Shown one piece after another: positions 30,072-44,827 of a stretch of 64,000 bases of DNA; position 1 is the stretch's first letter, and the number at the start of each line of letters is the position of its first letter. The translations under genes and the position numbers were made by a program. Source of the DNA: a bacterium (lineage in GTDB: Bacteria > Hinthialibacterota > Hinthialibacteria > H5-UNCL2); the NCBI GenBank assembly GCA_015075175.1, contig JABTUV010000018.1, positions 1-64,000 on the forward strand. The letters are read 5' to 3'. The notes beneath the pieces were generated by a model. It was not told the DNA's origin. It ran no database searches and worked only from the letters and a program-made list of their open reading frames with translations.

Positions 30072-30689
30072 TCAATTGTTCTTCATATACCCCGGCGGCG
30101 GCGACGGCCCGAACCGGTAAATCTCGCCGTCCGAAAGCAAACCGTTGCTTGGGTCGTAGGTCCACGACCGCAGGTTGGCGACGTTGGCCGGCGTCAACGG
30201 AAACGGCAGGTATCCCGTCTCCTCGTCCTTGTCCGGCCCCAGGCTGAAAAGGAACCAATATCTCGGATCATCGACGTCCGGCGCTGTGCTGTTGACAGTG
30301 TTAAAGCGGATGAAGTCGTAGTAGACGTTCGCCGAGGAGACCAGGAAGCTCCCCGGCGTGCCGCAACGGCCGTCGCGGTCGACGTCCCGCGGGCACGTGT
30401 CCCACGGCTTGAAGAAGTCCAAAGGCAGTCGCTTGATGTACGGTACCGGCGTGGTCACGCAGTTCAATTCCTGCACCACGGCATAGCCGATGGACTTGGG
30501 ATAGTCGTGGTGGTCCACGCGGTAGGCCTCAATGGCGATGGCCAGGTTGCGCATGTCTTCTTCCACGCGGGCGATGCGCGCGCGCAATTGCGCGTGCAGG
30601 AAGTTGGGGATGGCGATCGCCGCCAGAATGGCGATGATGGCCACCACGATCAGCAGTTCGATTAAGGTAAAGCCCAAACGACGTTGCAT
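30072..30689 (-). CDS. GspG-like major pseudopilin (type IV pilin-like), copy 1
   Basis: A 205-residue protein. ATG 30689 has AGGA six bases upstream. The prepilin leader is cut at RRLG|FTLIELLIVVAIIA (Glu at +5). The helix continues to LAAIAIPNFLHAQ, then NLAIAIEAYRVDHHDYPKS as in GspG/PulG-type pseudopilins. A VTTPVPYIKRLPLDFF motif and the tail YDPSNGLLSDGEIYRFG are shared with the second copy at 43988-44746. Family knowledge: such subunits build the type II secretion pseudopilus or a related fibre and are processed by prepilin peptidase. No assembly ATPase, secretin or peptidase gene is in the window. Confidence 0.85.
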   Translation of the reverse strand: MQRRLGFTLIELLIVVAIIAILAAIAIPNFLHAQLRARIARVEEDMRNLAIAIEAYRVDHHDYPKSIGYAVVQELNCVTTPVPYIKRLPLDFFKPWDTCPRDVDRDGRCGTPGSFLVSSANVYYDFIRFNTVNSTAPDVDDPRYWFLFSLGPDKDEETGYLPFPLTPANVANLRSWTYDPSNGLLSDGEIYRFGPSPPPGYMKNN

Positions 30690-30759
30690 GTTAGTCCTCA
30701 CTCTCTCGGGCATCAGTCAAGCATCCGGCGGGGCGCGGAGCAGACCCCACCACCAATGG

Positions 30760-31474: not shown

Positions 31475-31665
31475 GAGGCGCCGAACAGCCGCCGGGACCA
31501 GCGCCGATTTTGCCCGTCCCAAGCCGGCGTCACTGCGAGCGTCTCTGCGCGCAATTGACGACGCCCCCCCCAACGCGCCCCCGACCTGATTTCCTCGTTC
31601 CCAACTTCGCGCCGCAATGGTAGAATCTCGCGTTTACGACATCCTTCGCGTTTGAGGTGCGATTC

Positions 31666-33104
31666 ATGGATCCCAATGCCGTTTCCAGCCACAGTCTCAC
31701 GGTCCGCGTGGACATCAAGAACGTTCAGGGCAACTTCGCCAAGCTGACCAACGTGATCGCCGAACAGGGCGTCTCGATGGGCGCCATCGACGTGGTGCAC
31801 GTGACGCGCGACTGGGTGACGCGCGACGTCACCGTGAACTGCGGCAACGAGGAGGAGGCCAAGCGCGTGCTGGACGCCATCCGCAAGATGAAGGGCGTCC
31901 GGCTGCGCAGCTGGTCGGACAAGACCTTTCTCCTGCATCTGGGCGGCAACATCCGCGACGAGAACAAGATCCCCGTCAAGACGCGAGAGGCCCTCTCCCG
32001 CGCCTATACCCCCGGAGTGGCGCGCGTCTGCATGGCCATCGCCGAGGACAAGGACAAGGCCTACAACCTGACCATCAAGAACAACGTGGTCGCGGTAGTC
32101 TCCGACGGAACCGCAGTGCTGGGCCTGGGCGACATCGGTCCCGAGGCCGCCATGCCCGTCATGGAAGGCAAGGCCATGCTGTTCAAGGAGTTCGGGGGCG
32201 TGGACGCCTTCCCCCTGTGCGTGGACAGCAAGGACCCCGAGGAGATCATCAAGTTCTGCAAGATGATCGCGCCCACCTTCGGCGGCATCAACCTGGAGGA
32301 TATCTCCGCGCCCCGCTGTTTCACCATCGAGGACCGGCTCAAGAAGGAGTTGGACATCCCGGTGTTTCACGACGATCAGCACGGCACGGCGGTGGTCGTC
32401 TTGGCCGGACTCCTGAACGCGCTCAAGCTGGTGGGCAAGAAAATCGAGGATCTGCGCGTGGTGGTTTCGGGCGTGGGCGCGTCGGGCGTCGCCTGCTCCA
32501 AGATTCTCCTGAACGCCGGCGTCAAGGAGATCATCGGCCTGGATCGCGAGGGCGCCATATACAAGGGGCGCACGGGCCACATGAACTTCATGAAGGAGTG
32601 GTTCGCCGAGCATACCAACCCCAGGATGCTGCAGGGCAGGATCATGGACGTGATCGAGGGGCGGACATGTTCCTGGGGCTGTCGGGGCCGGGGACGTTCC
32701 CGGTGGAGGCGCTCAAGAAGATGGGGCGGGACCCGATCGTCTTCGCCATGGCCAATCCGGTGCCGGAGATCATGCCCGAGGAGGCGGCGCCCTATGCGCG
32801 CATCGTGGCCACGGGCCGCTCGGACTATCCCAACCAGATCAACAACGTGTTGTGCTTTCCGGGCATGTTCCGGGGCGCGCTGGACGTGCGCGCGAAAGAG
32901 ATCAACGAGGAGATGAAGCTGGCCGCCGCGCACGCCATCGCCGACATCATCCCGGAAGCCCACCTGATGGAGGATTACATCATTCCCAGCGTGTTCGACA
33001 AGAAGGTCGCCAAGGCGGTCGCCAGCGCGGTCGCCGACGCGGCGATCGCGACCGGCGTGGCGCGCCGCGGAAAACACCGCTCCGCAGACCAGGTGGACTT
33101 CTGA
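31666..33104 (+). CDS. NAD(P)-dependent malic enzyme with N-terminal ACT domain (one frameshift)
   Basis: Oxidatively decarboxylates malate to pyruvate. Residues about 8-80 form an ACT regulatory domain (LTVRVDIKNVQGNFAKLTNV). The catalytic part has AYTPGVARVC, GLGDIGPEAAMPVMEGKAML, INLEDISAPRCF, the metal site DDQHGTAVVVLAGLLNAL, and the dinucleotide fold VVVSGVGASGVACSK. The second frame gives MFLGLSGPGTF, VFAMANPVPEIMPEEA and NQINNVLCFPGMFRGALDV. The frame breaks at GGGG 32658-32661, where one more G restores the expected Glu-Gly-Ala-Asp-Met; a homopolymer error is likely. ATG 31666 is preferred over an upstream GTG because GAGG lies eight bases before it. Confidence 0.93.
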
Positions 33105-34220: not shown

Positions 34221-35327
34221 TCAGCGCATCTTGACTTGCAGATACAGGTTGCGCGCGCCCGCCTTGACCGTCAGGGCCGCGTCGCGCTCGCGCAGCGTGG
34301 AAATCTTGAACACGTCCACCACCGCCTCCGCGTTCAGGGGCTCCTGGCCCTCCGACGTGTAGGTAGCCTGGATGTGCACCTTGCGCGCCTTGTAAGCCAG
34401 CTGAGTCGGCGGCAGGTACAGGCCGAGATACTGCGGATCGCCCCGCGACGGGTCGACCGGCGCGCTGACCAATTGCCCGAAACCGGCATCCTGGTCGGCC
34501 AACTTCACTTCCATGCGCCCCTCGGTGTCGATCTTGCCCAGGCTGTTGAACGCGACCGCGACCACCTCCGCGGACGGCCCGTCGCCGTAAAGTCCGCCGC
34601 CGGACAGGAGGCTGTCGTCCACAATCAACCGCGACGGCAGCACTTTCAGGTAGAGATTCACCGCGATCGGTTTCGGAATCTCCGGCGTTTGCACCGGCGT
34701 GTCATTGACCGGCACGGGCGACGGCGTCTGGGTCGCGTCGGGGATGATCGGCGTGGGGATTACCTCCGGCAGCTTGGGCTCCTCGGGCGGCTCGCTGGGC
34801 TCGTCCGGTTCGCCGGCGCCGCCGCCCGCGTCCGCCGTCTGGCTGTATTTCAGCCCCGGCGAGTAGAGCTGGAGGACCAGCGAGGCGTCACGGGGAACCG
34901 GAGCGGTTCCGCCGGCCAGGTCTTGCGTTACGTCCACGGCCAGCAGGATGGGGCCGCCGGCCGGGCCTTTCACGCGCGGTTGGACTTCACCTGCGGCGCG
35001 CGGGGCGCTGTGGCTGCTCATGGACAGAACCACGTTCACCCCGTAGTTCAGCGGCTCGACGGCGACCGACCCGGTCGCGTCCACCAGGTACGCGCCGACT
35101 GCGATGCTGAACGTGTAAAACCCCGTCGGCTGCCCGTAGACGGTCGCTGATGGCGCCGTGGGATGCAAGTGGGCAACCTTATTGATGAGCGGCGGGTGAA
35201 CGTCCCACTTCTCCAGGTCGCTGACGTCGGACAGGCTGTTGGTCGCCGCGAGGGCCAATCCTACGATGGCCAAACCCAGCGCCAATCCCGCCAACCCGAC
35301 CGCCGCGTTCTTAACCCTTGTCTTCAT
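34221..35327 (-). CDS. Hypothetical secreted protein with Pro-rich linker
   Basis: A 368-residue protein starting at ATG 35327. The signal peptide (residues 8-28) ends near LALAATNSL. Two beta-rich domains are separated by a long Pro/Glu/Thr linker (about residues 165-220, EPDEPSEPPEEPKLPEVIPT). The first has repeated Val/Leu strands of the kind seen in pilus-associated or immunoglobulin-like domains. The last (about 230-368) resembles a cohesin-like or bacterial Ig-like fold, without a motif I can name. It has its own promoter and terminator, so it is a single-gene unit next to the pseudopilin operon; a link to that system is only suggested by location. Confidence 0.6.
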   Translation of the reverse strand: MKTRVKNAAVGLAGLALGLAIVGLALAATNSLSDVSDLEKWDVHPPLINKVAHLHPTAPSATVYGQPTGFYTFSIAVGAYLVDATGSVAVEPLNYGVNVVLSMSSHSAPRAAGEVQPRVKGPAGGPILLAVDVTQDLAGGTAPVPRDASLVLQLYSPGLKYSQTADAGGGAGEPDEPSEPPEEPKLPEVIPTPIIPDATQTPSPVPVNDTPVQTPEIPKPIAVNLYLKVLPSRLIVDDSLLSGGGLYGDGPSAEVVAVAFNSLGKIDTEGRMEVKLADQDAGFGQLVSAPVDPSRGDPQYLGLYLPPTQLAYKARKVHIQATYTSEGQEPLNAEAVVDVFKISTLRERDAALTVKAGARNLYLQVKMR

Positions 35328-35538
35328 ATCCCGTCCACTTCCTTCTTCGTCCCACTTGCCTTTTTCGGCATCCGCCTGAACCAGGTTCAAGCGTTTTTCG
35401 ACTCTAAACCTAGTATATCAGGCCCCCGCTCCGACATCACAAAAAAGTTCTAACCGACTGAAATTGAAAAAGATGCTGACAATAGGACGTTGCGCCTGGG
35501 AGTCCTCTGGCCCTACCCAGATTATACCGCGCGGCGCG

Positions 35539-35611: not shown

Positions 35612-38600
35612 TCATTGCGCAAAGCGCAGGAAGATGGACTCCATCACTTTCTGGGACAGGACCATTTCGTCTCGGTCGGGCGAGAGGTCCACGATCTGGC
35701 CGCGCGAGATGACGGAGAAGACCAGCGAGCGGGTGGTCGCCAGGTTACAGACGCGGGCGAAGGACATGGTGAGATCGGCCTTGTCGACCTGGCCCGGGAA
35801 TCGTGCTGACAGCTCGTCGTAGAGCTCTTGTGAGAAGAGCACGGGCAGAAGGTCCGCGACGGTCTCGTAGGGACCGTCGTCGGAGCCGCGCTCGCGGTAG
35901 GCGGACTGAGGTTGAGGGTCGAAGCGGCCGTCGCCGTCGCTGTCGAAGGCGCCGAAGACGCCGTCGTGGCCGACCAACCGCCGGCCCAGGAGCACGTGGC
36001 GGGCGACGATCCAGTTCCAGTCGGCGCGCTCGGCGGCAGGCAGCGTGGGCGGCGCCCAGGGCAGTGCCGACAGCACCGGCAGCGGCGCCGTGTTGAGGTT
36101 GATCTGGCCGGGGATCATCCGCCCCTCCGTGCGCGAGCCGGTCAGAAAAGCGAAGTTGGGCGAGAGGTCCGTCAACCCGAAACGGCCGAAGGGCTTGCCG
36201 TTGTGCACGTTGACCAGGTAGCCGGGGGATGCCAGGCCGCCGTTCTTGACGGGTACGTAACGCTGCGTCTTGGCGTCCCGGTCCAACCCGAAGTTGTGCG
36301 TGGCGGTCGCACTGTAGGGCTGGGAGGGACTGCTCCACAACTCGCCCGTGAAGGGGTCGAAATCGGGCAGGTAGAACGGGTTGGGCGCGCCGGGCGTGCC
36401 GGTGCGATAGAGGTACTTCCGGTCGCCCGTATCAAAATCGCCCACACGGGTCACTTCGACGTAGTCGAAGTAGAAGCCCGGCTCTTCGTCGTCGGGAATG
36501 ATACGGCCCGCCAGGTCGCGCGCCGCCCCGTCGCACACCAGCTCCAGCGTCAGGTCCCCCTGCTGGCGCGGATACCAGTAGAAGACCACGTTGCCGTGGT
36601 GCATCTGCGCGCGCGTGAGGCGATCCACGGGATTCACGTAGAGGTCCTGGGCCGCGTCGTCCTGCAAGGGGGAGAGGAGATGCCAATTCAGGTCGGTTCC
36701 CGGCGCGTCCGGGATGACGACCTGCCCCACGGGACGGTTTAATACACCGAAGACGCGTACCTGGTAGACGGCGTCCGGCGACATGAGCGTGGCCAACCGC
36801 GCCGAACCCTTCCAGAAAAAGCCGATGCGAATGTTGTCGGAGACGTGGGTGGGAGCGAAGTACATGCCCAGGCGGCGACCCAGTACCGCGTCCTGCGAAT
36901 CCGTGGCGCGCCCACCCAGAAAGCGCATCCGGTCGAGGTTGGTTCCCGCGGGCCGGTCCGCCTGGAGGGCATAGAAGCGCATGGTGGGCGTCTCGGGCGA
37001 GACGTAGGAAACGCGCCGGCCCGCCGCCTGCTCGACGCTGGTGTTAAACCGCAGCTCGCCCGGATCACGCCGCTCCTGCGCCGTGAAGCCCAACCGTCCG
37101 GTCGGCTTGAGCGCATTGAGGCGCGAGGTGAAATATTTCATCCGGTCCACGGGGACCAGGTTCACCCCCGTGCCCGCCACCGGCCCGACCAGTTGCACGA
37201 TGCCCTCGCGCGGGCTGATGTCCAACCGCTCGCCGCTGAACTTGCCCGCGCCCACGGCTACCGGGTTGGTCAGAAACAACTCCGAAAACGCCATGCGCAA
37301 TCCCGACTCGGACACCGCCTCGTTCACGGCCACGTTGATGGTGGTGTTGTAAAACGCCTCCAGCACCGACAACTTGGTCCGGTCCGGCACGATCAGGAGA
37401 TAGTTGCGAAAGTCAGTCGGATTGTTGGGATCAAAGGGCGGGATGACCGCGTTGGGTCCGATCACGTACTTGTTGGTCGCCTGGCCGGTGACCCATACCT
37501 GCCAGCCCGATACGTCTACCGGCAGGCGCGACAGGTTGATCAACTCCAGGTATTGCATGTCCTTGGCGAAGAGGTCCACGCTGTCAAAAGAGAAGTCCTG
37601 CAGGTCGTGCTCGCCCCAGGCGCCCGTGCCGTGTTTGCCCTTGTTGCCCAGGTCGGCGGGAATCTCGATGTCGATCTCCAGTTTGCCGCCCGTCAGGTTG
37701 ACGTTGTCCACGGTGAAGGCGTTGAAATCGGCGCCGCGCACGGTGCGATTCCAGCCGCCCAGCGCCAGTACGTCCGTGTCGTTGATCTTGATGGCCTTCT
37801 GCAATTCCGTGGCCACCGCGGTCGTAAACGGATCATAGGTGATGGGGCCGGTGGTAATCACAACGTCGTAGACGCCCTCGGGCACGTTCTCCCAGGTCCA
37901 GCGGGCGCGCTCCGGCTGCGGGTTGGGACGGTCGCTGGGCGAGGGCGGCTCGCTCGCCGGTTTCTTGTACGGATCGTTGATGACGCGATAGTAGGCGCGG
38001 TTGACGGCCCGTGGCGCATTCGCATCGTAGAGTTCCCGCTTGTAGGGCGTGATGCGCAGCGCCCCGCCGGCCAGCGAACGCTCGGTCGTCTCCCGGCTCC
38101 AGGAGGTGTCGTACCAGTACTGGGTTCCCGTCGGAAGCGTGTCGTCGGCCGCGCCCTCGGTGAAGTCGCGGGAGTCCTCGAACGTGTCGGCGTTCTCCGC
38201 CTCCAGGTGGATGACGGGGGCGGACATGATCTCGTTGAGGCGCACGCCCTCCAGGCCGGTATAGACGCCGACGTGGTTGAGGTTGAGGTAGGGGATGCCG
38301 CTGGTGTCGCCCTCGCGCATGGGAGGCAACCCGCCGTCCGCCGGCGAGGTGAGCGGGATGGGAAGTTGATCCGGCGTGGTCCCCAGAAACGCGGCGAAGC
38401 GCTGGAAAGGATAACTCACGTGCCTCCCGCTGTAACCGTACAGGCGGGCGATGGTGGGCGGATCGAAATTGCCGACCGGCTGGTCGATGTAATCCACCAG
38501 GTTGACCAGGTAGGGATACTCGGGAGGGTCCTCGTCGAAGCGGCCGTCCTCGTCGTCGTCCCAGGCGGCGAGGTAAGGCTCGCCGAACTCGTCGGTCAGG

Positions 38601-40542
38601 CCGTCCCAGTCGTTGTCGATGCCGTCGTTGGCCCAGCCGAGCAGGGCGATGGCGTCCAGCGCGCGCTTGACTTCGGGATCGTTGAAATCGGTTCCGCCGT
38701 CGCCGTCGTCGTCGATTCCCTGCACCCCGGGATAGCCGTCGCCGTTGGCGTCGCCCCAGGGGTCTTCGTTCACGCCCCACTCGGGATCGTAGCCGACGTT
38801 GCCGTCACCGTTGATGTCGCCGTCGTCGTCGATCAGCCCGTCGCGGTCGTCGTCCTGGCCGTTGCCCTCGCCCGGCTCGTCCACGCGCCCGTCGCGGTCG
38901 TTGTCGATGCCGTCCGAGGAGAAGAGCGGGTTGAACGTGTCCGACTCCGGGCCGCTGGCCCAGTCGCCGTCCGGCCGCCCGTTGCCGTTGTGGTCGTCAC
39001 GGTCGGGATTCCAGTCGCCGTCGTTGTCGATCTGGATGGGCAGCACGTAGTTGATCCCACCCAGGCTGTTGGCGCGCGCGTGATAGGTTAAGAGGAGCGA
39101 GGGATTGATCAGGCCGGGCGAATACGGCCCCTTGAGCGGATCGTTGATGACTCTGCCGCAGCCGGAGAAATCTGCGGCGAGCAGCTCCAGATGGTGACCA
39201 GGTTGCGCACCTTGTCGAAGGTGGTGGTATTGCCGAAGGCCAGGTCGGTGCGAGAGAAGCCGGGTACCAGCGCCAGCTCGTCGATGGAGCCGAAATTGTT
39301 GTCGTCCCGGCGGTTCCACTCGGAGGGTTCGTCGATGCCTTCGCCCTCCTCGTCGGTGAGGCCGTCCGCGTCGTTGTCCAGCCCGTCGCCCAGGATGTCC
39401 GTGAGGGTGATGTTGAACATGCCCTGGCGCGGGGCGCCGATGTAAATTTCATCGAACTCGTCGATTTCGCCGTCGCCGTCGTCGTCCAGACCGTTGAAGC
39501 CGACGTTGGGCGTGTTGTTGCCGTTGTCGTCGCCCGGCCCGCCGGGCGCCCCGTCCGTGCCGTAGCGATAGGTGAGGATGTTGCGCACCAGCGTCTCCGC
39601 CTGCGACGCGGGCCAGCCCAGGTTGATGAACATGCTGACCGCGTCCAACTCGAAGGTGTCGATCCCCTCGTTGTAACGCAACGAGAGGTTGCCGAAATGG
39701 TTGAGGTTGAGCAGCCCCGAGTGGTCCACGACCCCCGCGAAATCGCCGTCGTCGTCGACCAACCAGTGCATCTTGAGATAGGCGTCGGTGCGCGGGTCGG
39801 CGAGGTAGGCGCCGGCGCCGCGGTTCACGAAGGTTTCGTCGGGCGGCTGATAACCCCCGTCCTCGTCGATCAGGCCGTCCTCGTCGTCGTCGAAGTCAAA
39901 CAGCGGGTTGTAGCCCGGTTGGCCCTTCTGGACACCCATGTTGTCCTCGTCGGTGAGGCCGTCGCCGTCGTCGTCGATGCCCAGAAGGCCCGGGGCGGTC
40001 TGGGTGTCGAAGCCCATTTGCACCGAGAGGTCGCCGGGGGGGTCCTCGTCCAGCCCCTGGGGCAGATAGTACTCGGGATCGGCCATGCCCTCCGCGAATC
40101 CGGGAACCGGCAGGAGCCGCGCGGGCGTGTAGCCGCGCGAGGAGAAGACCGAGTCGCGGTCCAGCCGCCCGATAAAACCCACGTACCAGCTGTCCATCTT
40201 GGAGTCATAGGGGCGCGGTTCATCGCCGGAGTAGGGAATGTTGTCGGGACCATTGGCGAGCGCGTAGAGCGAGGTGTTGGTCTTGCGCAGGGCCGCCTCG
40301 GAGACGTCCTGGACGCGCATGAACCGCTGGAAGCTGCGCGAGGTCGCCAGCTCCAGCCGCGCCGCCGCCAGAAAACTGAACGCCACCAGCGCCATGATGG
40401 TGAGAATCGCCAACACGCTGATCAGGGCCACGCCCGAGCGTCCAGGATGAGGGACAGTCACCCATTTTCCAGGTGACGTCCGCGGATGCGGGGCGGAGCT
40501 GCGCGGAAAATTGTTGACTGTGCCTTCCACGGCTCGCCTCAC
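35612..40542 (-). CDS. Giant GspK-like minor pseudopilin with acidic calcium-loop repeats and a lamin-tail-like segment (one frameshift)
   Basis: This protein of about 1,640 residues starts at GTG 40542, overlapping the previous stop as GTGA. A leader of about 36 residues precedes the prepilin helix GRSG|VALISVLAILTIMALVAFSF. GspK hallmarks are DHSGLLNLNHFGNLS (near residue 255), the second LNLNHVGVYTGLEG, and the C-terminal GQINLNTAPLPVLSALPW (near 1480). Between them lie about a dozen acidic loops of the form GIDNDxDGxxDE. Near residues 765-1020 a LNEIMSAP ... YLELINLSRLPVDVSGWQVW pair resembles a lamin-tail domain, interrupted by a beta-rich insert. Normal GspK has about 320 residues. The frame changes near 39190; sequence on both sides is continuous. 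Role inferred: tip subunit of a type II secretion or pilus-like fibre, with calcium binding. Confidence 0.8.
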
Positions 40543-41554
40543 TTTCTCGCGTTGGCCGGCGCGACCGAAGTCTGCATCATGCGCGGGCGCTGGGTGCGAT
40601 TCTCATCCGCCAGCCAGACGGAGATGGTGACCAGCATGGGCAAATCCGACAGGATGTCCGCGTCAGTGTCGGGCGGGCGGCCCAACTCCGAGTTGACGAT
40701 GGCGGGATTGGCCGTGTCCCAGTTGTTGACGGTGCGCAGGTTGCCGTCCCCGTCGCGGAAGGTGTAATGGATGTCCAATCCGACCACGTCGTCGGCCAGG
40801 TCGGCCAGCGAACCGGCGCTGGAGGCGAATTGCGTCTCGTCCGACAGATAGGGCACGTCCAGGCCGGAAGGCTCCCGATACGTGCCGAAGGTGCGCAGGC
40901 TGCCGCCCTGCATGCGAAACACGCGAAAGCGCTCGCGCAGCGGATTGGGATAGAGGGGCGAAATCCCGTAGCCGATCTCGACGATGTCCAGGTCGCCGCC
41001 GTTGGGCACGGGCGCGGTGAAGTTGATGATGTCCATGGGAATGGTGGCGGATCTTCATCCACCATGAAGTCGCCGTCGTTGTCGATGCCGTCCCAGGGTC
41101 CTCGTCCATCCTGCCGTCGCCGTCGTTGTCCACGTTGAGATAGGTGACGGTGATGACGCCGAGGGCATAACCGCGGGTGGGATCCTCGCCCAGCGTCTGC
41201 ACCACCGAGCGGCCGATGTGCCGGCCCACTGAGCGATAGCCGACGGGCTGGGCGATGCGCAGAGTGTCGCGCAGGAAGGGATCGGGGCCGGGACTGGCGG
41301 CGCGGATGCGCTCGGTCACGCGCGTCAGGATGCTGCGCCCGCGCTCCTCGACGCTGGTGCGTTGGCGCGCACGCTCGCGCGCGTCAAGCCGGACCTGAAC
41401 GTCAGAAGCGACAAACCCACGATGATGGACAGGATGGTGATGGAGATCATCACTTCCACGAGGGAAGCGCGAGGAAGGGGATAGGACGTATAGGACCTAT
41501 GGGACCTATGCGACGCGCGACCGGAACGCTGAAGGACAACGGAAACCGCATCAT
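40539..41554 (-). CDS. GspJ-like minor pseudopilin (several frameshifts)
   Basis: ATG 41554 overlaps the previous stop as ATGA, and its own TGA overlaps the next gene's GTG. The prepilin helix is in RASLVEVMISITILSIIVGLS. After this comes DARERARQRTSVEERGRS, then ILTRVTERIRAASPGPDP, as in GspJ/PilW. Two acidic loops (NVDNDGDGRMDED and a MVDEDPPPFP segment) precede a beta domain with NFTAPVPNGGDLDIVEIGYG and RFRVFRMQGG, close to the GspJ pattern. The reading frame changes near 41475, 41395, 41100 and 41045. The N-terminal leader is encoded by a 9-base tandem repeat (41481-41510) giving Ile-Gly-Pro units. The total would be about 338 residues. Confidence 0.7.
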
Positions 41555-42894
41555 CGTTTGGTCCTCGCGCCGACCGGCAGGATGCCCGACAGGACGTAGC
41601 GGCCCAGGTAGGGTCCTGTCGATGCGGCCGTCAGATCGTCGTCCAGGCCGTTGCGCGCCTCCTCGTCGGTCCAGCCGTCGCCGTCCTCGTCCTCGCGGTC
41701 GCCGCCCCAGGTGATCTCGATGCGCACCAGCCGGTAGCCGGGCATGGGATAGGCCAAGAGGTCCTCGTCGATGAGGCCGTCCAGATCGTTGTCCAGATGG
41801 TCGTAATACTCCTCGTCGATGCGGGCCGCGCCCAGGAAGTAATCGTTATCGTTGTTGAAGCCGTCTCCGCCCTCCGAGACGCGCCCCACGAAGATACGCC
41901 AGGAGTAGTTCTGGTAGGGCCGCCCGAACGGCATGGGGCAGAAGGGAAACGAGGCCAAACGGGTGTCCTCGTCGATTCTGCCGTCGTGGTCGTCGTCCAG
42001 GCCGTTCCAGACCTCCTCGTCGATGCCCTCGTCGATCCTGCCGTCGCCGTTGTTGTCCAGGCCGTCGGCCAGCGCCTGGCCGAGGAGGTTTCGGGGCGAG
42101 CCGGGTTCCCCGTCGCCGTCCTGATCGACGCCGTCGCCGGGCATGAGCGCGCGCCGCGCCATGTACTCGCGGGTCGCTCCCGCCGGCGGGATGAGCACGA
42201 GCACCGAGGCCAGCATGGTGTCCTCGTCGCGCAATCCGTTGCGGTTGTCGTCGCGCCCGTCCGCGTACTCCTCGTCCACGGGTGGCTCCGGATCATACGA
42301 GAGATCGCCGTCGTCGTTGGCGTCGCCGTTGTCGTCGATCGCTCCATCGCGGTCGTCATCGATGCCGTTGGGAGCGATGTAGGGATTCAGGTTGGGAAAG
42401 CGGTCGAAGCCGCGCTCGTGGTCGGCCTCGGGCATGCCGTCCCAATCGACGTCCTTCCAGCCGTCCTGGTTCCAGTCTTGGTCGGGCGGGCCGGGATTGG
42501 TCGAGTAGAACTGCTTTTCGCCGGGCAGCGCGTTGTCGTCCATGCCGTTGCCCGGCAAGGGAATGGCCGACAGGAAGGGCGTGTTGGGGTCGGGGTAGCC
42601 GACCACGCCCGGCACGTCGCCCATGAAGCGCTCGGCGGGAAGCGGCCAGGGGATGTTGGGATCGGCGCGCATCTGGTAGAGCAGGTGGGCGGAGGGATCG
42701 GCCTTCAGCGACTCGATGATGCTCTGGGCCAGAAAGGAGGCGCGGGTGTTCTGCTCCACGCGCAGGGCGACTTCCGCGCCCTTGGGAAAAATCTGCAGCA
42801 CCGCGATGAGTCCCGCGCCCAGGACGATCACGGCGATCATCACTTCCAGAAGGTTGAATCCCGCCGGTCGGGAGGCGCAACGGGAGCGCGTCAC
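41551..42894 (-). CDS. GspI/PilV-like minor pseudopilin with acidic calcium-loop repeats
   Basis: A 447-residue protein starting at GTG 42894, which overlaps the upstream stop as GTGA. Prepilin site: RPAG|FNLLEVMIAVIVLGAG with Glu at +5. Residues about 100-440 contain about nine acidic loops such as GIDDDRDGAIDD, GLDNNGDGRIDEG, GLDDDHDGRIDED and HLDNDLDGLIDED, placed within an otherwise beta-rich pseudopilin body (REYMARRALMPGDG, SWRIFVGRVSEGG). GspI is usually about 120 residues, so more than two thirds here is extra. The loops resemble EF-hand or thrombospondin type 3 calcium loops and, without the Cys, MopE-like motifs. The frame is intact. Confidence 0.78.
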   Translation of the reverse strand: MTRSRCASRPAGFNLLEVMIAVIVLGAGLIAVLQIFPKGAEVALRVEQNTRASFLAQSIIESLKADPSAHLLYQMRADPNIPWPLPAERFMGDVPGVVGYPDPNTPFLSAIPLPGNGMDDNALPGEKQFYSTNPGPPDQDWNQDGWKDVDWDGMPEADHERGFDRFPNLNPYIAPNGIDDDRDGAIDDNGDANDDGDLSYDPEPPVDEEYADGRDDNRNGLRDEDTMLASVLVLIPPAGATREYMARRALMPGDGVDQDGDGEPGSPRNLLGQALADGLDNNGDGRIDEGIDEEVWNGLDDDHDGRIDEDTRLASFPFCPMPFGRPYQNYSWRIFVGRVSEGGDGFNNDNDYFLGAARIDEEYYDHLDNDLDGLIDEDLLAYPMPGYRLVRIEITWGGDREDEDGDGWTDEEARNGLDDDLTAASTGPYLGRYVLSGILPVGARTKR

Positions 42895-43653
42895 CGATAC
42901 ACCCCGATGGGCAGTTCGTCGTGCCATGGACTGTTCTTGCCGTAGGGGTAGGTCTTGATGCGGCCGGTATTGCCGAGCACGGTGATGGTGTGCACCTTGC
43001 GGCGCGTCTGCATTTCGGCGGCGTCCTTGTCGGTCACGCCCACGCCCACGCGGCCCCGGATGTTGCGCAACTGGCCGCTGCTGATGAGGGCGTAGTCGTA
43101 GGGGACGTTGCGGCCGCCCAGTTGCAGCGGATCGCTCTTGAGCGCCAGGTGGAGGGAGAAGGAAGTCTGCGAGGCCTCGACGCGCCCGCCGGCGGAGATT
43201 TCCGTCACGTTGCCGGCGGCGTTGAACACCACGTAGAAGATGGCGGCCGGTTGGTTGGAGGGGAAAATGCTGTTATTGTCGCTGTGCAGGAGGCCCAGGG
43301 CGCAGTTGACGTCGGCGATGTCCACGAAGCGGGGCAGGGTGATGATCTCGCCCAGGCGGCGCGAGTTGTTGGTCCAGGCGCGGCCGCGGCCCTCGTCGAT
43401 CTTGCCTTCCAGCCAGAGTTGTTCGTTGCGCAGGTCGATGGCCACGCGCCGCTCCAGCCCGCGCGTAATCGCCGCCTGCCGCGCCGCCGACAGCACCGTC
43501 GTGGACGACCGTGGTCGCCTCGCTGAGTTCCCGACCCCGCCCGTAGTACACGAACGAGCCGATGCCCAACCCGGTCATGATACCGACGATGGCGATCACG
43601 ACCATGAGTTCCATCAACGAGTAGCCGGACCCTCGACCGCGCCCGCCGGTCAT
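42891..43653 (-). CDS. GspH/FimT-like minor pseudopilin, first gene of the operon (one frameshift)
   Basis: This protein of about 253 residues starts at ATG 43653 with GAGGAG seven bases upstream. Prepilin site: GSG|YSLMELMVVIAIVGIMTG with Glu at +5. The second frame carries LSAARQAAITRGLERRVAIDL, as in GspH/FimT where a helix precedes the first beta strand, then a VVFNAAGNVTEISAGG strand motif. The frame changes near 43500. Its TGA overlaps the GTG of the GspI-like gene. Unlike the other three minor pseudopilins it has no acidic loops. It leads an H-I-J-K order typical of type II secretion minor pseudopilins. Confidence 0.75.
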
Positions 43654-43987: not shown

Positions 43988-44746
43988 TTACGGCCCCACG
44001 CGATAGATGTCGCCGTCGCTGATGATGCCGTTGCTCGGATCGTAGGAGAGATCGTCCAGGGCGCGCCGCAGTCCGCCCATGGCGTTGACGGCGTTGACGA
44101 TTCCAAGGTCGGTTCCCTCGATGTAATGAATCACTCCCCGCTCGTTGATGTCGCCGAGTCGCGCGGGCGAGCCGCTGTCGCTGGCGGTGGAAAGCGGGTT
44201 GGGATTGTTCGTCCCCACGCCCGGCCGCCCCACGTCTTTGAAGAGGTCCTGGTCCGGACCGAACGAGGTGAGTACCCACCCGTTGGCGCCGTCCTTGGCG
44301 TTGCGATAGCAGTAGGTCAATATGTCCCGATAGCCGGGAATGAAGGGGTCGTGGGGCAGGGCGGCGATATAAGGGACGGGCGTGGTCAGCGTGTCGAAGT
44401 CCTGGCCGGCGACCTTGCCGCCGCCGCGCACGCGAAAAGCGTAATAGCCCGGCGCCAGCGGTCCCAACACCGCCGCGATGGCGGGGTCCTGGTTGGCCGG
44501 ATTGTCCGTGCCCTCGGGATAGTCCAGGTGATCCACGCGATAGGCCTCGATGGCGGTCGCCAGGTTGCGCAGGTCGGCGTGGACGCGACCCACGCGCGCC
44601 CGAATCTGCGCATGCAGAAAGTTGGGGACGGCGATGGCGGCCAGAATCCCGATGATGGCGACAACGATCAGGAGTTCGATGAGCGTGAAGCCCTTGGCGG
44701 CGCGGCGCAGATTCATGGAGCGGTGTTCGATGGAACGGATCGGCAT
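43988..44746 (-). CDS. GspG-like major pseudopilin, copy 2
   Basis: A 252-residue protein starting at ATG 44746 with GGGAG upstream. Leader and cleavage: AAKG|FTLIELLIVVAIIGILAA, Glu at +5. It continues with IPNF-type VPNFLHAQIRARVGRVHAD, NLATAIEAYRVDHLDYPEG and LTTPVPYIAALPHDPFIPG. The tail YDPSNGIISDGDIYRVG matches copy 1. Between them is an insert of about 70 residues with an acidic, Asn-rich stretch. It is transcribed from its own promoter, separated from the H-I-J-K operon by a repeat, and probably supplies the main fibre subunit for it. It could instead belong to a different pilus. Confidence 0.85.
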   Translation of the reverse strand: MPIRSIEHRSMNLRRAAKGFTLIELLIVVAIIGILAAIAVPNFLHAQIRARVGRVHADLRNLATAIEAYRVDHLDYPEGTDNPANQDPAIAAVLGPLAPGYYAFRVRGGGKVAGQDFDTLTTPVPYIAALPHDPFIPGYRDILTYCYRNAKDGANGWVLTSFGPDQDLFKDVGRPGVGTNNPNPLSTASDSGSPARLGDINERGVIHYIEGTDLGIVNAVNAMGGLRRALDDLSYDPSNGIISDGDIYRVGP

Positions 44747-44799
44747 GTCGGTGTCTCCCTTGGTTTTCGTTTGTATACTATAGGCAACAGCCGATGGGC

Positions 44800-44827
44800 A
44801 TAGTGCACTGCCAGGTAGGTTTGTCAA
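44800..44827 (-). promoter_or_regulatory. Candidate promoter of GspG-like copy 2
   Basis: On the minus strand TTGACA (44822-44827), a 16-base spacer and CACTAT (44800-44805) lie about 54 bases before the ATG. Confidence 0.4.

What the first reader, a model, noticed from the sequence alone, without database searches (positions are those of the whole stretch)
35612..40542. A GspK-like pseudopilin of about 1,640 residues with lamin-tail-like and acidic-loop insertions
The protein has GspK hallmarks at both ends: a prepilin helix, LNLNHFG and GQINLNTAPLPVLSALPW. It is about five times the family length. Inserted between them are about a dozen GIDNDxDGxxDE loops and a LNEIM ... YLELINLSRLPVDVSGW segment resembling a lamin-tail domain, itself split by a beta-rich insert. 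In type II secretion GspK caps the pseudopilus and contacts substrates, so an enlarged tip could be a calcium-dependent substrate or surface recognition device. I know of no described pseudopilin of this size and build.
Basis: partly seen in the sequence, partly recalled or inferred. Interest (0 to 1): 0.8.

Follow-up and report, generated by a model that had tools for sequence, protein, structure and literature searches.

The report
Giant modular GspK-type filament-tip protein
In a little-studied bacterial lineage, the protein expected to cap a type II secretion-like filament is four to six times the usual size and appears to carry calcium loops and a sugar-binding-like module nested in a lamin-type domain, so the filament tip may be a recognition or adhesion head.

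Summary
The gene at 40542-35612 (minus strand) encodes a 1,643-residue GspK-like prepilin with ten DxDxDGxxD loops (shuffled mean 0.3). The frame change near 39180 is almost certainly a sequencing or assembly error: eight relatives read from helix to C-terminus in one open frame of 1,773-2,275 codons, all 14 held genomes of the class carry the family, and neighbouring window genes are broken the same way. The gene ends an H-I-J-K minor-pseudopilin cassette that stands apart from ordinary T2SS operons with normal GspK in the same genomes. Folding supports the lamin-tail guess (lamin A/C, Z 9.0, 106 of 113 residues). The 'beta-rich insert' splitting it folds like CBM6/35/36 carbohydrate-binding modules (Foldseek E 6e-4, Z up to 9.3). 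The helical part of the N-half finds ETEC GspK (3ci0_K, Z 6.8). Smaller GspK+LTD proteins (636-1,572 aa) occur in other lineages, several in filament operons, so this class has enlarged an existing architecture. Best reading: a modular tip pseudopilin, calcium-stiffened, presenting an LTD/CBM-like head for polysaccharide or surface recognition. Calcium and glycan binding are inferred, not shown, and the models have low average confidence. New variant of a known kind.

The parts
35612..40542 (-). Giant GspK-like minor pseudopilin gene (K); GTG start at 40542 overlaps the stop of J (GTGA); frame change near 39165-39185
40249..40440 (-). Prepilin N-terminal helix (G^VALISVLAILTIM..., no Glu at mature +5, as in GspK)
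   Evidence: NCBIfam T2SS_GspK E 2.8e-7; hhalign to ordinary GspK 98.1%; AF2 helix
39184..39714 (-). GspK alpha-domain (LNLN...ILTYRYG...FGSIDELALVPGF...LVTIWS)
   Evidence: VIA-align to 3ci0_K Z 6.8, 80 residues, rmsd 2.7; alignment A3; T2SSK_1st over cut-off in relative L086
39949..39975 (-). DxDxDGxxD loop 1
39865..39891 (-). DxDxDGxxD loop 2
39460..39486 (-). DxDxDGxxD loop 3
39352..39378 (-). DxDxDGxxD loop 4, at the position shared with relatives outside the class in A3
38879..38905 (-). DxDxDGxxD loop 5
38828..38854 (-). DxDxDGxxD loop 6
38687..38713 (-). DxDxDGxxD loop 7
38591..38617 (-). DxDxDGxxD loop 8
38534..38560 (-). DxDxDGxxD loop 9
38216..38260 (-). Lamin-tail-like domain, first strand (RLNEIMSAP)
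   Evidence: VIA-align lamin A/C 1ifr Z 9.0, 106 of 113 residues, rmsd 3.2; Pfam LTD in relatives
37556..38224 (-). CBM6/35/36-like jelly-roll module nested in the lamin-tail-like domain
   Evidence: Foldseek 2cdp_A E 6e-4 prob 1.00; VIA Z 8.0-9.3 to MiXBM, CBM86, CBM36, CBM35 over model residues 18-240
37130..37558 (-). Lamin-tail-like domain, remaining strands (QYLELINLSRLPVDVSGW ...)
35744..36109 (-). Second GspK helical (T2SSK/HHH) domain GQINLNTAPLPVLSALP..., including loop 10 at 35918-35944
   Evidence: T2SSK weak in the window, over cut-off in relatives L044, L086, L174; helices pLDDT 80-90
40539..41470 (-). GspJ-like pseudopilin (J), read across three apparent frame changes; 2 acidic loops
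   Evidence: tblastn with class J proteins and three-frame translation
41551..42927 (-). GspI/PilV-like pseudopilin (I), 458 aa, 6 acidic loops
   Evidence: TIGR02523 E 1.2e-8; tblastn 3.8e-46 to class I
42891..43653 (-). GspH-like pseudopilin (H), one apparent frame change
   Evidence: N_methyl 3e-5; GspH E 2.2e-5
43988..44827 (-). GspG-like major-pilin-type gene upstream of the cassette, same strand
   Evidence: TIGR01710 E 1.2e-15

Best explanation
The gene encodes a modular minor pseudopilin of GspK type, read here as the cap of an H-I-J-K tip complex of a type IV filament (T2SS-like). The GspK core (prepilin helix, alpha-domain, second SAM/HHH domain) is kept. DxDxDGxxD loops are inserted in and after the alpha-domain, and a lamin-tail-like domain that itself carries a nested CBM6/35/36-like jelly roll is inserted before the second SAM/HHH domain. 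Likely working: the helix anchors the protein at the filament tip with I and J, calcium in the acidic loops (also present in I and J) stiffens the outsized tip, and the LTD/CBM-like head projects forward to bind polysaccharide or another cell-surface or matrix ligand, so that filament assembly presents a recognition head. Shown: the single chain, the conserved cassette, the GspK-type helix, the fold matches of the models. Inferred: tip position, calcium binding, ligand class.
For: 14 of 14 held class genomes carry it; eight relatives are single open frames of 1,773-2,275 codons. Pilin-type I and J genes sit just upstream of K where the contig shows it, with an H-type gene in most. GspK-type N-helix. 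Alpha-domain: 3ci0_K is Foldseek's top hit (E 2.8, weak) and the only chain with Z >= 2 (Z 6.8). LTD: HMM in 8 of 8 members, fold Z 9.0-9.3. CBM-like insert; the only PDB sequence hit of the insert profile at E < 10 is 1w9s (E 7.5, not significant), from own knowledge a CBM6. Compact relatives with T2SSK and LTD in one chain, some in operons with E, F and pilins. Precedents: GspK/XcpX binds Ca2+ (PMC6211770); modular tip pilins with lectin or vWA modules (PMC9934059, PMC8179133).
Against: Average model confidence is low (pLDDT 50-53; the LTD/CBM strands reach 70-80). Z of 7-9 for a jelly roll can be shared by non-carbohydrate domains (Eph receptor ligand-binding domains also appear at 7.2-7.7). 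No Pfam CBM profile matches the insert. No sugar-binding residues were identified. The window's own sequence is below the curated cut-offs for GspK, T2SSK and LTD. No engine genes adjoin the cassette, so its filament partner is unknown. About 220 residues after the LTD core remain unassigned.
Confidence: 0.55

Rival explanations
1. The enlarged tip is a substrate receptor of a type II secretion system: it selects exoproteins in the periplasm and the filament pushes them through a secretin.
For: GspK belongs to the T2SS tip complex (PMC6211770); the class has several secretins per genome and complete T2SS operons.
Against: All 14 class genomes have at least one ordinary GspK match and most have two or three loci, some inside complete T2SS operons, while this cassette lies apart from any secretin. 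The head folds like glycan-binding modules.
Confidence: 0.25
2. The insertions are bulk without a specific ligand: they only change the size or stiffness of the tip, for example to fit a wide secretin or set filament length.
For: XcpX/GspK has been proposed to control pseudopilus length (PMC6211770); loops and linkers vary in number and length between genera.
Against: The LTD-like domain is recovered in all eight aligned class members and outside the class, and the nested insert keeps its motifs.
Confidence: 0.12
3. A relative of the Verru_Chthon pseudopilin cassette (TIGR02600 protein A, 1,296-position model) with an unrelated, unknown role.
For: Similar plan: a very large protein with a prepilin-like start in a pilin cassette; the N-terminal 49 residues match TIGR02600 at E 0.0014.
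Against: Only the generic helix matches, 16.6 bits against a cut-off of 332; no genome among 386 searched passes the cut-off.
Confidence: 0.05
4. Two separate genes or a decayed pseudogene.
For: Frame change near 39180 and further ones in J and H.
Against: Uninterrupted relatives; a malic-enzyme-like gene at 31657-33104 is also split, pointing to indel errors in this assembly.
Confidence: 0.03

Closest known systems
GspK / XcpX, minor pseudopilin of type II secretion (PDB 3CI0, 5VTM)
   Same: Prepilin helix without Glu5, LNLN/INLNTA motifs, alpha-domain fold (3ci0_K Z 6.8), place after H-I-J, a calcium-binding precedent (PMC6211770)
   Different: 4-6 times longer, up to ten extra DxDxDGxxD loops, inserted lamin-tail-like domain with nested CBM-like module; not in the T2SS operon
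Modular tip pilins of Streptococcus sanguinis (PilB with vWA, PilC with lectin)
   Same: Functional module grafted on a pilin and placed at the filament tip by modelling (PMC8179133, PMC9934059)
   Different: Built on a GspK core; modules nested inside one another; the most extreme modular pilin cited there is 860 residues
Lamin tail domain (PF00932; lamin A/C 1ifr)
   Same: Fold, INEVM...YxELxN...DxSGW signature
   Different: Interrupted after the first strand by a jelly roll; sits inside a pseudopilin
CBM6/CBM35/CBM36 carbohydrate-binding modules
   Same: Jelly-roll fold; EAE start, W-x-F-x-N-x-P-x-G-x-Y-D-V-V middle and D-x-I-E-L end (signature compared from own knowledge)
   Different: No Pfam profile match; ligand residues not identified; nested in an LTD
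Verru_Chthon cassette protein A (TIGR02600)
   Same: Very large protein with a prepilin-like start in a pilin cassette
   Different: Only the first 49 residues match

Membership tests
GspK (NCBIfam NF037980 / Pfam T2SSK, T2SSK_1st) | Score over curated cut-off | tested here: not met
   Window: 30.4 of 130 bits (NF037980), 10.5 of 24.2 bits (PF03934). Met for T2SSK by shorter relatives L086, L174, L044 and for T2SSK_1st by L086
GspK (NCBIfam NF037980 / Pfam T2SSK, T2SSK_1st) | Class III prepilin helix without Glu5 | tested here: met
   G^VALISVLAIL; hhalign to ordinary GspK 98.1%, E 1.1e-13
GspK (NCBIfam NF037980 / Pfam T2SSK, T2SSK_1st) | GspK alpha-domain fold | tested here: met
   3ci0_K Z 6.8, 80 residues, rmsd 2.7; moderate only: model confidence low, Foldseek E 2.8
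GspK (NCBIfam NF037980 / Pfam T2SSK, T2SSK_1st) | Encoded with GspH-, GspI- and GspJ-like pseudopilins | tested here: met
GspK (NCBIfam NF037980 / Pfam T2SSK, T2SSK_1st) | Sits at the tip of a T2SS pseudopilus with I and J | not testable with these tools
   needs protein work
Lamin tail domain | Pfam cut-off in the window protein | tested here: not met
   13.2 of 34.3 bits; met in relatives L171, L174, L178
Lamin tail domain | Lamin Ig-like fold | tested here: met
   1ifr Z 9.0, rmsd 3.2, 106 of 113; 3gef_A Z 9.3
CBM6/35/36 | Jelly-roll fold | tested here: met
   Foldseek prob 1.00, E 6e-4; Z 8.0-9.3
CBM6/35/36 | Sequence profile match | tested here: not met
   no Pfam CBM hit; PDB profile hit 1w9s at E 7.5 only
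CBM6/35/36 | Carbohydrate binding | not testable with these tools
   needs a binding assay
EF-hand / TSP3 / dockerin calcium repeats | Pfam profile match | tested here: not met
   no hit at E up to 10; loops are DxDxDGxxD
Verru_Chthon cassette protein A | TIGR02600 cut-off of 332 bits | tested here: not met
   16.6 bits, N-terminal 49 residues only

The most novel reading that the evidence does not exclude
A whole bacterial class carries a separate, calcium-stiffened minor-pseudopilin tip complex (H-I-J-K) whose K subunit, of 1,600 to 2,200 residues, is a glycan-recognition head built by nesting a carbohydrate-binding module inside a lamin-tail domain inside GspK, used for attachment to or sensing of polysaccharide rather than for ordinary protein secretion.
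Probability: 0.35. Interest if true: 0.78.

Novelty: new variant of a known kind. Interest (0 to 1): 0.6.

Why it matters
Modular pilins are known, but the most extreme example cited in the survey found here is 860 residues (PMC8179133), and that survey used the IPR012902 N-terminal signature, which GspK-type helices such as this one do not match (no N_methyl hit). A GspK of 1,643 to about 2,200 residues with nested lamin-tail-like and CBM-like modules, present in all held genomes of a class and with graded shorter relatives in other lineages, shows how the cap of a secretion filament can be turned into a recognition head. It also gives a handle on an open question, what the GspK alpha-domain and tip are for, through compact relatives (636-799 aa) that are small enough to express and solve.

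Tried and rejected
Viral contigs: no relative. PDB sequence searches with the K profiles found no GspK. Profile-profile comparison of the N-half with ordinary GspK aligned only the helix, probably because insertions break the local alignment; the fold comparison was needed for the alpha-domain. The 389-aa protein downstream (34221-35390) is not detectably related to the conserved downstream protein of the other class genomes (hhalign probability 5.9%), so it is left out of the cassette. EF-hand/TSP3/dockerin reading rejected (no profile hit). Verru_Chthon A considered and not supported. The second insert (about residues 1175-1400) was not assigned: the fold list is dominated by the LTD and CBM-like regions and no further prediction job was available. 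Class identity was not established: two held genomes match public records titled 'Candidatus Omnitrophota bacterium' and 'bacterium'; a link to Hinthialibacterota is a guess from memory.
Full report
Observation. On the minus strand two overlapping open frames, 39109-40542 (477 aa) and 35612-39319 (1,235 aa), give a 1,643-residue protein when read through a frame change between LVTIWS and LLAADF at about 39165-39185. Read in that way it has a prepilin helix (G^VALISVLAILTIM), LNLNHFG, ten DxDxDGxxD loops (0.29 expected from 300 shuffles, maximum 2), LNEIM...YLELINLSRLPVDVSGW, and GQINLNTAPLPVLSALP.

Frame change. In the same class of genomes, eight relatives run from the prepilin helix to the C-terminus in a single open frame of 1,773-2,275 codons without an internal stop; others are cut by contig ends. 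The window's J gene needs three frame changes and H one, and a malic-enzyme-like gene at 31657-33104 is also split. The simplest reading is indel error in this assembly; real decay is not excluded without reads.

Conservation. The profile of the family finds it in 14 of 14 held genomes of the class at E <= 1e-10. Pilin-type I and J genes (the I proteins with about 6-12 acidic loops, J with one to four) lie immediately upstream of K where the contig shows it, and an H-type gene before them in most loci. In the window a GspG-like gene precedes H (44827-43988). The loops are therefore shared by the presumed tip trimer I-J-K.

Not the ordinary GspK. A query with the K of a class T2SS operon (L168: ATPase, F, pilins, K, secretin of 1,002 aa) matches all 14 genomes, mostly in open frames of about 423-684 aa and in most genomes at two or three loci. 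The window's genome has two such loci (G000:C1 and G000:C6). No engine gene adjoins the giant cassette. It is thus an additional tip complex.

Is it GspK? By curated cut-offs the window protein is not a member: NF037980 30.4 of 130 bits, T2SSK 10.5 of 24.2. By build it is GspK-like. The N-helix aligns to ordinary GspK (hhalign 98.1%, E 1.1e-13). The low-confidence model of the N-half (mean pLDDT 52.5) has 3ci0_K, ETEC GspK, as its top Foldseek hit (E 2.8, weak) and as the only chain with Z >= 2 (Z 6.8, 80 residues, rmsd 2.7). Shorter relatives with the same order of motifs do pass cut-offs: L086 (T2SSK_1st 34.6, T2SSK 27.6), L174 (T2SSK 35.4, LTD 35.5), L044 (T2SSK 24.8). In alignment A3 an acidic loop of the type DGIDNDGDGxIDExxEGxDxPxEF, before DxPFxTxxEL, is shared by most class sequences and by the six from outside the class.

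The inserts. Between the alpha-domain (ending in ITVYS/LVTIWS) and the second SAM/HHH domain (INxNTA) the window protein has about 1,000 residues. The model of the C-half (mean pLDDT 50.3; strands of interest 70-80) matches lamin A/C (1ifr, Z 9.0, rmsd 3.2, 106 of 113 residues; 3gef_A, Z 9.3) over model residues 6-391, spanning a nested domain at 18-240 that matches carbohydrate-binding modules (2cdp_A Foldseek E 6.0e-4, prob 1.00; MiXBM Z 9.3, CBM86 8.5, CBM36 8.3, CBM35 8.0). The nesting is also visible in sequence: compact relatives L174 and L086 go from INEVM to YVELYNP or WIELFNP without the jelly-roll insert, while L170, L171, L178 and the class carry it in varying length. Pfam LTD is found in all eight aligned class members below cut-off (best E 3.3e-6) and over cut-off in L171, L174 and L178. 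Cautions: Z of 7-8 is common for jelly rolls, Eph receptor domains also appear, no Pfam CBM profile matches, and the only PDB sequence hit of the insert profile, 1w9s, has E 7.5.

Spread. Searching 386 genomes, the family profile also hits eight outside the class. GspK-like proteins of 636-1,572 aa with LTD signatures lie next to pilin genes, and in L171, L174 and L044 in operons with E, F and further pilins. Named records: L043, 'Candidatus Aerophobetes bacterium', and L044, 'Candidatus Omnitrophota bacterium'. GspK with an embedded LTD is thus a wider architecture; the class has enlarged it (direction of change inferred, no tree was made).

Mechanism. Shown: one chain in relatives, conserved cassette, GspK-type helix, lamin-like and CBM-like folds by model. 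Inferred: assembly at the tip with I and J as in the known I-J-K trimer; calcium in the loops (precedent: three Ca2+ sites and a Kd of 26 uM in XcpX, PMC6211770); glycan or surface binding by the head (precedents: PilC lectin and PilB vWA modular tip pilins, PMC9934059 and PMC8179133). Rivals are T2SS substrate selection and bulk without ligand.

Literature. No held paper was found that joins 'lamin tail domain' with 'type II secretion'; the one paper with 'lamin tail domain' and 'pilin' is about haloarchaeal biofilms; the term Verru_Chthon is in none. The library holds open-licence papers only, so absence there is weak evidence. Verdict: a real, class-wide, outsized variant of a known kind, with a testable recognition-head hypothesis.

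Noticed in passing
window 31657-33104 (+): Malic-enzyme-like gene split across two frames (VIEGRT / VIEGADMFLGLSG), which supports indel errors in this assembly.
   Followed up: partly
window 30072-30713 (-): A second, isolated GspG-like pilin gene (TIGR01710 E 5.9e-14) with one acidic loop, away from the cassette.
   Followed up: no
G005:C6:191920-192411 and G007:C377:7265-7753: Secretin-domain matches lie in open frames of 3,549 and 2,170 aa, far longer than an ordinary secretin.
   Followed up: no
L168:7229-9226 and L101:178-2196: Ordinary GspK proteins of this class carry long glycine-rich inserts between their HHH domains.
   Followed up: no
G000:C1 about 275,800-279,000 (L164:5767-8970): An ATPase plus T2SSF pair with no pilin or secretin recognised within the 18 kb read; a candidate engine for the orphan cassette.
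   Followed up: partly
L042:6386-8503: The I-type pseudopilin candidate of G005 is about 706 aa with 12 acidic loops, larger than in other class members.
   Followed up: no
window 34221-35390 (-): 389-aa protein with a signal-like hydrophobic start downstream of K; not related by hhalign to the roughly 430-aa protein conserved downstream of K in other class genomes.
   Followed up: partly
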